25,031 bases of DNA from a virus, in the IMG/VR virus record IMGVR_UViG_3300016457_000870, positions 1 to 25,031 of that record; one strand, written 5' to 3'. Positions 996 through 3,450 of the stretch are shown here, one piece after another; the stretch's first letter is position 1, and the number at the start of each line of letters is the position of its first letter. The notes beneath the pieces are model-generated. The model was not told where the DNA came from and did not search any database. It saw nothing but the letters and a program-made list of their open reading frames with translations. A program made the translations under genes and the position numbers.

Positions 996-1706
996 ATGTT
1001 GAAAGAATTCGTTGAAAAAATTACCGCGCTGGCCGCCCCGAACTACAAAGACCTCGAAGATGGTCGAGTTTATTCGGATAAACACTTAACCCTTATCACA
1101 GAACCTGAACCGGAACCCATCCAAACGCACAACCTGTCCAGCCTTATCGAGTATATCAGAGAGGCCCTTGATGACTCACCGGGACAAATCATCAATATCG
1201 TAAGCCCAACTTTAGTTACGCTTCTCTCCGAACTTAACGCCCTTCAACAGCGGAAAACGTATATGGAAATTTCTTATAAGATGCCTGCCTTTCCGTTTGG
1301 GCAGTATCTTTCGCTTGATATATTTATTATAGGCTTACAGTCAAAATTCGAGGATACCCCCACTCGCGCTGAAATCCTGAAAATTATTGGCAATGTGAAG
1401 TCTGAAAATGTTGTCACAATGAAAGATGATGGAGTCTCTCAGAAAGTGGAAGTGGCTACCGGGGCCGCGAATGTGGATAATAAAATCATACCGAACCCCG
1501 TTACTTTAATTCCTTACCGGACTTTCCCCGATGTAGAGCAGCCCGAGAGTCACTTCATACTTCGTATGTCTTCCGCCAATGGTCTCACCTGTGCTCTTTT
1601 TGAGGCGGACGGGGAGCAGTGGAAGGTTGCTACTATGGCGAATATCAAAAAATGGCTGGAAGAGGAGCTCAAGGACACCTTAAATTCTCCGACTATTTTA
1701 GCATAA
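996..1706 (+). CDS. Conserved phage protein of unknown function
   Basis: A 236-residue protein starting 3 bases after the previous stop, with AAAGGAGAAAT as ribosome site. I recognise the layout from many prophages, where it follows the replication-terminator-like gene. Landmarks are a YSDKHL motif near residue 26-31, a central segment around LKIIGNVK, a DDGVSQKVEV motif, and a C-terminal FRTF-EVEQPES-like stretch followed by CALFEADGEQWK. No catalytic motif, membrane segment or signal peptide is visible. The C-terminal helix is rich in Glu and Lys. Function unknown; a role in early replication or recombination is suggested only by position. Confidence 0.65.
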   Translation: MLKEFVEKITALAAPNYKDLEDGRVYSDKHLTLITEPEPEPIQTHNLSSLIEYIREALDDSPGQIINIVSPTLVTLLSELNALQQRKTYMEISYKMPAFPFGQYLSLDIFIIGLQSKFEDTPTRAEILKIIGNVKSENVVTMKDDGVSQKVEVATGAANVDNKIIPNPVTLIPYRTFPDVEQPESHFILRMSSANGLTCALFEADGEQWKVATMANIKKWLEEELKDTLNSPTILA

Positions 1707-1720
1707 GTGGTTTTTGCATA

Positions 1721-1825
1721 GTGGGGTATGGTACGGTGGGGTGGGGTTGGGTCAGGTCCGGTGGGGTGCGGTTTGGTAGGGTGAGGTGAGGTGTGGTTTG
1801 GTGAGGTGGGGTATGGTGAGGTAGG
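1721..1825 (+). repeat. Pentamer array 1, GTNNG x 21
   Basis: Twenty-one consecutive 5-base units without one register slip. Every unit has GT at positions 1-2 and G at position 5, while positions 3-4 vary (GG, AT, AC, TG, CA, CC, GC, TT, AG, GA, GT). It fills most of the gap between two early genes. A normal leader with its own ribosome site (GGGAGGA, about 1862-1868) follows. Units are diverse, so simple slippage copying does not explain it. Confidence 0.9.
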
Positions 1826-1877
1826 GCAAACAACCCCAAAAACATTAAACATCTAACACACGGGAGGATACAAAAAA

Positions 1878-2486
1878 ATGGAAGAGCTAAAAGTCAAACT
1901 AATAGGGACAGCCCCCTTGTTGACTCACAACAATCGAGGTGCGAACCCTCTTGGTGCATATGCTCAGGCAATGAAGCCTCTTACATCAAAAAGGAATAAA
2001 ACAGATGTAGATTACGGGGAGATTGCACGGCTTGAATGGGAAGCAGGGCTTTACTTAGATAATGGCGTAGTAGTATTGCCTGCAAGATGTCTGGAAAAAA
2101 CCTTTTTGCTTGGTGCTCGAAAAGCAAAAAACGGGAAGAAGTATGAGTCCGGGGCTATGGTTAAGGAAGATTTCTGCGAACTTAGTTATAAAGGAACCCG
2201 GATAAAGGTAACAGAAACTGGTGAAATTCCGAACCCTGATCTTGATAAATATTATGACAAATTCTGTCATCAGGCGATGGTTAGGGTCGGCACTAATCAG
2301 GTGCTTAGGACACGACCGATTTTCTATGATTGGAGCTTGGACGTTACGGTCTCTTATAATGAAAGTCAAATTGATGAAAGATCTTTGTTCAAGTGCCTGA
2401 AAGATTCAGGAAGGTTGGTAGGTCTTTGCGAGCAGAGGCCACGGCTTGGGAGTTTTGAAGTGAAAAAAATTGAGGAAAGCGAGTGA
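1878..2486 (+). CDS. Conserved phage protein with a PLLTHNN N-terminus
   Basis: A 202-residue protein preceded by GGGAGGA. It opens with a beta strand and a PLLTHNN motif, followed by a K-R-K-T-D...E-I-A-R-L-E segment, an RTRPIFYDW motif at about residues 145-153, and a C-terminal LVGLCEQRPRLGSFEV. I recall this arrangement in a widespread family of unannotated phage proteins next to recombination genes. The glycine-containing C-terminal strand loosely recalls RAMP/Cas7-like folds, but that is speculation. No catalytic residues can be named. Its TGA stop lies in the first unit of pentamer array 2. Confidence 0.6.
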   Translation: MEELKVKLIGTAPLLTHNNRGANPLGAYAQAMKPLTSKRNKTDVDYGEIARLEWEAGLYLDNGVVVLPARCLEKTFLLGARKAKNGKKYESGAMVKEDFCELSYKGTRIKVTETGEIPNPDLDKYYDKFCHQAMVRVGTNQVLRTRPIFYDWSLDVTVSYNESQIDERSLFKCLKDSGRLVGLCEQRPRLGSFEVKKIEESE

Positions 2487-2567
2487 GGCGTGGTGTGGTG
2501 AGGTGGGGTGAGGTAGGGTGAGGTGCGGTGAGGTAAGGTGGGGTGAGGTGTGGTTTGGTGAGGTGGG
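2483..2567 (+). repeat. Pentamer array 2, GTNNG x 17
   Basis: Seventeen 5-base units, sixteen fitting GTNNG and one deviating (GCGTG at 2488-2492). GTGAG is the commonest unit, so GAGGTG, a good anti-16S match, recurs through the array. The stop codon of the preceding gene is inside the first unit (gTGAg). Downstream a normal leader with TGGGAGGAC precedes the next ATG at 2600. Confidence 0.85.
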
Positions 2568-2599
2568 GTAATTAACACATCTATTGGGAGGACAGTTTT

Positions 2600-3118
2600 A
2601 TGGGCGAAACAGTAATTAAGCATTATCCAGGGTGGGCACATGCTTTGGATGTTATTGTCGAGAGAGTGGGCAAGCAAGGCCATGGGATCTTTTTCAGCCA
2701 TGAGGAATTGAAAAAGCTTATGGAGATCAAAGAGCCCAAGACTATTGAAGACTATAAACAGAACAGTCTTGAATACATGAATAGCGTTGATCATCTTCGC
2801 AAGGAACTTCTTCAAAATCATCAAATGTGGCTGGATAACAAAAGGGGCGATGGATATATAATTTTACATCCCGATGATCAGGTATCGAAAGTACCAAAGG
2901 ATTTAATTGCAAAAGCATCTGCTGTAATGGGACAGGCAGTAAATGTGCTAACCAACGTAAGGGCGGAGCTTTTGAGTTTGGAAGCGGGAGCAACCAGGTT
3001 GCGAAATTTCCAGAGGGTTGCCTTCCTGCAACGATCTTTTAGAAAGAGAAAAATACCACAATTAAAAAATCCACCCCATAAGCTTAAGGCTTTGGCTGAA
3101 GGGGGAAAGGTTAAGTGA
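2600..3118 (+). CDS. Phage early protein, possible winged-helix C-terminal region
   Basis: A 172-residue basic protein with ribosome site GGGAGGA. Residues about 65-95 (RKELLQNHQMWLDN then GYIILHP) look like the helix plus beta-hairpin found in several phage DNA-binding or replication-associated proteins, where a W-L-x-N-x-R-G-x-G-Y motif recurs. The C-terminus is lysine- and arginine-rich. I do not recognise a named family with confidence. It lies between two pentamer arrays; its TGA stop (3116-3118) is within the first unit of array 3. Confidence 0.55.
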   Translation: MGETVIKHYPGWAHALDVIVERVGKQGHGIFFSHEELKKLMEIKEPKTIEDYKQNSLEYMNSVDHLRKELLQNHQMWLDNKRGDGYIILHPDDQVSKVPKDLIAKASAVMGQAVNVLTNVRAELLSLEAGATRLRNFQRVAFLQRSFRKRKIPQLKNPPHKLKALAEGGKVK

Positions 3119-3264
3119 GTTGAGGTGCGGTGAGGTAAGTTCTGGCCTGGTCGGGTGAGGTGTGGTGGGGTCAGGTACGGTAGGGTTTGGTAAGGTCGGG
3201 TATGGTTGGGTCTGGTGCGGTCAGGTCTGGTAAGGTAGGGTCAGGTTGGGCGAGGTAGGGTATG
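3115..3264 (+). repeat. Pentamer array 3, GTNNG x 30
   Basis: Thirty 5-base units cover the whole intergenic space. About 26 fit GTNNG exactly; the exceptions (TTGAG, TTCTG, GCCTG, GCGAG) keep the 5-base register. The TGA stop of the upstream gene is in the first unit and the ATG of the downstream gene is in the last (gtATG). The array therefore also supplies the only leader and ribosome-binding sequence for the next gene. Confidence 0.85.
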
Positions 3265-3450
3265 GAAATACAAGAAAAAATATTGTGCTCATTTTGCGGA
3301 AAAAGTTTGGACGAAGTTGAATTTTTAATAAAAGGCCCTGGCGTTTATATTTGTGATGAATGCGTAGCTGTCTGCCAAATGCTTGTAAAATGGGAGCGGG
3401 AAGCAAGGGAAAGGAAGCCGTTTAAAATCAAAAAAGAAGAGCAAGCCTAA
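3262..3450 (+). CDS. Stand-alone ClpX-type C4 zinc-finger protein
   Basis: A 62-residue protein matching the N-terminal zinc-binding domain of ClpX: C9-x2-C12, an 18-residue loop with the typical [13 protein letters not shown] pattern, and C31-x2-C34. In ClpX this domain dimerises and docks substrates and adaptors such as SspB; the AAA+ motor is absent here. A phage copy could compete for ClpX adaptors or substrates, or serve as a small zinc module for another partner (inference). The C-terminus is highly charged (K/R/E). The start codon lies in the last unit of pentamer array 3 and there is no conventional leader. Confidence 0.75.

What the first reader, a model, noticed from the sequence alone, without database searches (positions are those of the whole stretch)
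1721..1825. Pentamer array 1: 21 in-register GTNNG units with two free central bases
Fixed GT..G with variable centre cannot result from simple slippage, which yields identical units. A 5-bp period is half a helical turn, so the fixed bases alternate faces of the helix; the array is also G-rich on one strand. It may be a protein-binding track, a recombination or packaging substrate for a single-strand binding protein such as RecT, or an RNA element between cistrons.
Basis: seen in the sequence. Interest (0 to 1): 0.72.

Follow-up and report, generated by a model that had tools for sequence, protein, structure and literature searches.

The report
Phage RNA-guided (VIPR) guide array
The odd five-letter repeat is one of three guide-RNA arrays flanking a small Cas7-like gene in a phage, a member of the recently described VIPR systems, which phages appear to use to switch off competing phages by RNA-guided DNA recognition.

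Summary
In detail: 21 in-register GTNNG (better written GGYNN) units lie exactly at 1721-1825; shuffles give none. Two more arrays (about 2487-2571 and 3119-3263) follow on the same strand, and the three flank two genes. Gene 1878-2486 encodes a RAMP protein, a full-length homologue of 'SUSP1 Vipr' in PDB 36pp (E 3e-23; profile 7.5e-44) with a Csm3/Cas7-like predicted fold. Gene 2600-3118 is a profile-level homologue of the gene beside vipr in phage SUSP1, taken to be vap1. A 2026 preprint (PMC13142463) describes this kind of system: VIPR, a Vipr protein plus vrRNAs of alternating GGY/NN whose NN bases pair with DNA under a 1-nt-skip rule. My survey supports the link independently: 46 of 66 virus loci with diverse GGTNN arrays carry vipr against 1/53 and 2/55 controls, 45/46 on the same strand; 48/80 vipr loci have arrays on the coding strand, none on the other. 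No target was found. Verdict: new member of a known kind, with arrays (21, 17, about 29 units) longer than the published 9-16.

The parts
1721..1829 (+). vrRNA array 1 (the finding): 21 GTNNG / GGTNN units upstream of vipr
   Evidence: Direct reading
1878..2486 (+). vipr gene: 202-aa single-domain RAMP protein (phrog_4652)
   Evidence: PDB 36pp SUSP1 Vipr, phmmer E 3e-23 and profile E 7.5e-44; AF2 pLDDT 96; Csm3/Cas7 folds
2487..2571 (+). vrRNA array 2: 17 GGYNN units, starting directly after the vipr stop codon
2600..3118 (+). vap1-like accessory gene (172 aa, phrog_5926)
   Evidence: Profile of its homologues finds only the gene next to vipr in SUSP1 (E 7.8e-30); homologues next to vipr in the closest relatives
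3119..3263 (+). vrRNA array 3: 28-29 units, mostly GGTNN with one GTT and two GGC; last unit overlaps the start codon of the next ORF

Best explanation
The array is a guide RNA (vrRNA) of a phage-encoded VIPR system. The strand carrying GGTNN is transcribed with the vipr-vap operon. Vipr, a single-domain RAMP protein, is expected to polymerise along the RNA, each subunit holding one fixed GGU and presenting two variable bases. The NN dinucleotides pair with double-stranded DNA two bases at a time with one target base skipped between pairs. The bound complex would block transcription of the target, most likely a competing phage, prophage or satellite; the Vap1-like protein would strengthen it. 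Shown here: the arrays, their strand and layout, the GGY constraint with free NN, the identity and predicted fold of Vipr, and the vap homology. Inferred from the published SUSP1 and P. fulva systems: RNA expression and processing, filament assembly, 1-nt-skip pairing and repression. Unknown: the targets of these three arrays.
For: Vipr identity by sequence and fold; vap homology; array-vipr association 46/66 against 1/53 and 2/55 in controls, 45/46 same strand; 48/80 vipr loci with arrays on the coding strand, 0/80 on the other; conserved array-vipr-array-vap-array layout in closest relatives; GGY at 97% with free NN; guide content differs between near-identical viruses; NN dinucleotide skews (AT>TA, GC>CG) fit copied coding DNA (suggestive only); description of VIPR in PMC13142463.
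Against: No natural target found in IMG/VR with four 8-unit seeds. Arrays of 21, 17 and about 29 units exceed the published 9-16. No structured, conserved 3' tail was demonstrated. No expression data. 20 of 66 array loci lack a detected vipr in the fragment held, though in most the array lies at the fragment's edge.
Confidence: 0.92

Rival explanations
1. The arrays bind Vipr only to regulate the vipr-vap operon itself (an RNA operator or decoy) and do not guide it to DNA.
For: Arrays lie within the operon, abut stop codons and run into a start codon; no target found.
Against: An operator would not need hypervariable NN that turns over between near-identical viruses, nor series of up to a dozen or more arrays per genome. 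The published homologous system guides DNA binding.
Confidence: 0.05
2. The array is a DNA or ssDNA track for RecT or another recombination or packaging protein.
For: A RecT gene lies about 3.6 kb downstream; G-rich strand.
Against: The dominant shared gene family next to such arrays is vipr, with fixed orientation.
Confidence: 0.02
3. A tandem repeat that expanded by slippage or unequal recombination and then drifted neutrally.
For: Arrays 1 and 2 share a 28-bp block, so duplication or recombination does occur.
Against: Drift would strike GGY as often as NN, yet GGY is 97% conserved at its third base in arrays chosen for GG only. Slippage arrays in genomes look different: 3 of 124 arrays diverse against 143 of 231 in viruses; mirror control 4 of 69.
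Confidence: 0.01

Closest known systems
VIPR system of Escherichia phage SUSP1 (PMC13142463; PDB 36pp; KT454805)
   Same: Homologous Vipr (32% identity over the full length), homologous vap gene directly downstream (profile E 7.8e-30), GGY/NN arrays upstream and downstream on the coding strand
   Different: Window arrays are longer (21, 17, about 29 units against 9-16 published), lie directly between the genes and not only outside them, use nearly only GGT, and have no demonstrated structured tail; targets unknown
Class 1 CRISPR effectors (Csm3/Cas7 backbone)
   Same: RAMP fold; protein subunits repeat along a guide RNA (established knowledge)
   Different: No CRISPR array with foreign contiguous spacers; three of five guide bases fixed; a single RAMP gene
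TRAP (trp RNA-binding attenuation protein) RNA targets, (G/U)AG-N2-3 repeats
   Same: Pentamer-like RNA repeat with three fixed and two free bases bound by repeated subunits (from own knowledge)
   Different: Different fold, ring of fixed size, regulatory and not guide-like; considered only before Vipr was identified

Membership tests
VIPR system | Vipr, a small single-domain RAMP protein | tested here: met
   PDB 36pp match E 3e-23, profile 7.5e-44; RAMP fold
VIPR system | vrRNA of tandem YNNGG (GGY/NN) repeats in intergenic regions around vipr | tested here: met
   Three arrays flanking vipr and vap on the coding strand; GGY 97% in relatives
VIPR system | 9-16 repeats per vrRNA | tested here: inconclusive
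   Tracts have 21, 17 and about 29 units, but transcript ends are unknown; the paper mentions staggered overlapping vrRNAs; 44 of 247 surveyed stretches exceed 16
VIPR system | Invariable, structured 3' tail after the repeats | tested here: inconclusive
   Similar 3' ends in relatives, but no Rfam match and no fold better than shuffles
VIPR system | NN dinucleotides recognise DNA under the 1-nt-skip rule | tested here: inconclusive
   No natural target found; binding cannot be tested here
VIPR system | vrRNA is expressed and co-purifies with Vipr | not testable with these tools
   Needs small-RNA sequencing
Type II VIPR (vap1 type) | vap1-like gene next to vipr | tested here: met
   Gene 2600-3118; profile of homologues finds the gene beside vipr in SUSP1. 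That this gene is the paper's vap1 is inferred from position
Type II VIPR (vap1 type) | Vipr phylogeny within the type II clade | not tested
   No tree against the published reference set was built
CRISPR-Cas class 1 | CRISPR array with contiguous foreign-derived spacers and a set of cas genes | tested here: not met
   No direct-repeat/spacer array among the window's tandem repeats and no cas family among the early-region genes scanned; GGYNN arrays instead

The most novel reading that the evidence does not exclude
A VIPR variant with extra-long arrays: tracts of 17 to about 29 units that abut stop codons and run into the next start codon would be cut out of the vipr-vap mRNA itself and act as overlapping or unusually long guides, so that guide supply is tied to expression of the operon.
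Probability: 0.25. Interest if true: 0.55.

Novelty: new member of a known kind. Interest (0 to 1): 0.45.

Why it matters
VIPR is a newly described kind of RNA-guided DNA recognition with a gapped code, proposed to precede CRISPR. This window adds a metagenomic phage with a complete, compact system. The survey shows from sequence alone, without using the preprint, that GGYNN arrays and vipr belong together across many virus genomes, that their orientation is fixed, and that guide content turns over between nearly identical phages. It also shows array lengths beyond the published range.

Tried and rejected
RecT or ssDNA-binding track: the shared neighbour is vipr, not recT. Neutral slippage: GGY constraint and virus-specific diversity. 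Coding function: the arrays abut stop codons, a 5-base period is out of step with codons, and antisense ORFs such as 1550-1852 (-) are by-products of the repeat. Known structured RNA: no Rfam match; array RNA folds no better than shuffles. Targets: 8-unit, 1-nt-skip seeds (two from array 1, three from array 3) in IMG/VR gave matches that stop at the seed; array 2 was only compared with the loci held, where a 7-unit match in relative L298/L083 is within chance. Peptides decoded from NN as codon positions 1-2 gave nothing significant in PHROGs, Pfam or phages. All arrays against 2 Mb of held loci showed no preferred skip length, as expected if the targets are absent there. The host of the virus was not determined.

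Full report
What was checked. The 21 GTNNG units are present exactly as described at 1721-1825. A six-unit GGTNN pattern gives 41 overlapping matches, all on the + strand in three clusters, and none in 100 shuffles. The clusters are array 1 (1721-1829), array 2 (2487-2571) and array 3 (about 3119-3263). The window is a 25,031-base virus record, with a RecT gene and other phage genes downstream.

Finding relatives. In 57 of these loci the NN bases are diverse (143 of 231 arrays), while only 3 of 124 arrays from a scan of bacterial and archaeal genomes are. The mirror pattern TGGNN gave 67 stretches with 4 diverse arrays. So free-NN GGTNN arrays are concentrated in viruses. In several genomes they come in series, separated by a genome-specific longer repeat (L104, L032, L105, L067, L113, L037, L133, L099).

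The partner gene. All-against-all comparison of the neighbouring proteins gave one dominant family in 47 of 71 loci, the family of window gene 1878-2486. With a profile, 46 of 66 diverse-array loci hold it, against 1 of 53 loci with low-diversity GGTNN arrays and 2 of 55 mirror-control loci; in 45 of 46 it lies on the strand that reads GGT. The profile was built from members of these loci, so the first figure leans upwards, but the control figures do not. In most loci without it the array lies at the edge of the fetched fragment. Starting from the gene instead, 48 of 80 vipr loci carry strict arrays on the coding strand, none on the other strand, and 3 arrays appear in the reversed control. 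Several of the closest relatives repeat the window's layout: array, vipr, array, vap, array.

What the protein is. Pfam has no model for it, and PHROGs lists it as unknown (phrog_4652). The PDB sequence search identifies it: 36pp, 'SUSP1 Vipr protein', E 3e-23 over nearly the whole length and 7.5e-44 with the family profile. The AF2 model (pLDDT 96) matches Csm3/Cas7 backbone subunits of type III and type VII CRISPR complexes. The phiSUSP1 record holds the homologous gene (32% identity), a second gene directly downstream, and GGY/NN arrays around both. A profile from homologues of window gene 2600-3118 finds that second gene at E 7.8e-30 and no other in 50 kb of SUSP1, although the pair itself shows no direct BLASTP similarity.

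Literature. The only paper found is the preprint PMC13142463 (bioRxiv 2026.04.26.720920). It reports VIPR systems: a small RAMP protein, vap accessory genes, and vrRNAs of 9-16 YNNGG repeats with a 3' tail. The NN bases recognise double-stranded DNA with one skipped base between dinucleotides, usually the codon wobble position. Targets are mostly satellites and prophages, and the effect is transcriptional repression. The window fits this description. The preprint's data were not re-examined here.

Tests of mechanism possible here. The third base of the fixed triplet is a pyrimidine in 97% of units when only GG was required, matching GGY. Near-identical viruses differ in guide content: L282 and L284 are 99.6% identical over 5.2 kb but differ by whole units in array 1, and L283 has different guides between the same flanks; L104 and L032 (about 90% identical) share flanks and repeat but not guides. 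In 250 independent arrays AT exceeds TA (174:112) and GC exceeds CG (165:104), the skew of codon positions 1-2 read on both strands and not of the other two phases. This is suggestive of coding targets, but general genome bias contributes.

What failed. No natural target of the arrays was found: five eight-unit seeds under the 1-nt-skip rule, two from array 1 and three from array 3, gave matches in IMG/VR that do not extend beyond the seed. Peptides decoded from the NN dinucleotides gave nothing. No structured tail was demonstrated. The host is unknown.

Differences from the published systems. The window's arrays have 21, 17 and about 29 units; 44 of 247 array stretches examined exceed 16, so long arrays are not unique to it. 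Array 2 starts directly after the vipr stop codon, array 3 after the vap stop codon, and the last unit of array 3 overlaps the next start codon, with no promoter-like match next to the arrays. Guides may therefore be processed from the operon mRNA, or overlap within an array; this is inference.

Conclusion. The finding is very probably a guide-RNA array of a VIPR system, a new member of a known kind. Membership is strongly supported by the protein, the arrays and the layout; function in this phage is inferred from SUSP1 and P. fulva.

Noticed in passing
window 1785-1812 and 2542-2569: Arrays 1 and 2 share an identical 28-bp stretch of five units and more (GA GT TT GA GG), a sign of copying between arrays or of a constant 3' part.
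   Followed up: partly
window 3262-3450: A 62-aa ORF with a ClpX-type C4 zinc finger whose start codon lies in the last unit of array 3.
   Followed up: no
L105 2600-12930: One virus contig carries more than 20 GGTNN array stretches, one of 47 units, many separated by a 28-bp repeat.
   Followed up: no
L113 1-600: GGTNN arrays alternate with a hairpin-forming repeat of about 45 bases, very like a CRISPR layout; no Rfam match, so not a hammerhead by that test.
   Followed up: partly
L059 6589-7380: The one case where vipr lies on the strand opposite to the array (array just upstream, divergent).
   Followed up: no
INPHARED records NC_042322 (Mycobacterium phage LittleE), MH271318 (Gordonia phage Trine), NC_074658 (Pseudomonas phage Medea1): Cultured phages with vipr homologues annotated as hypothetical (129 records in all); possible laboratory models beyond SUSP1.
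   Followed up: no
L066, L135, L138, L141 and others without vipr: Diverse GGTNN arrays without a detected vipr, some not at a fragment edge; divergent Vipr types or orphan guide arrays.
   Followed up: no
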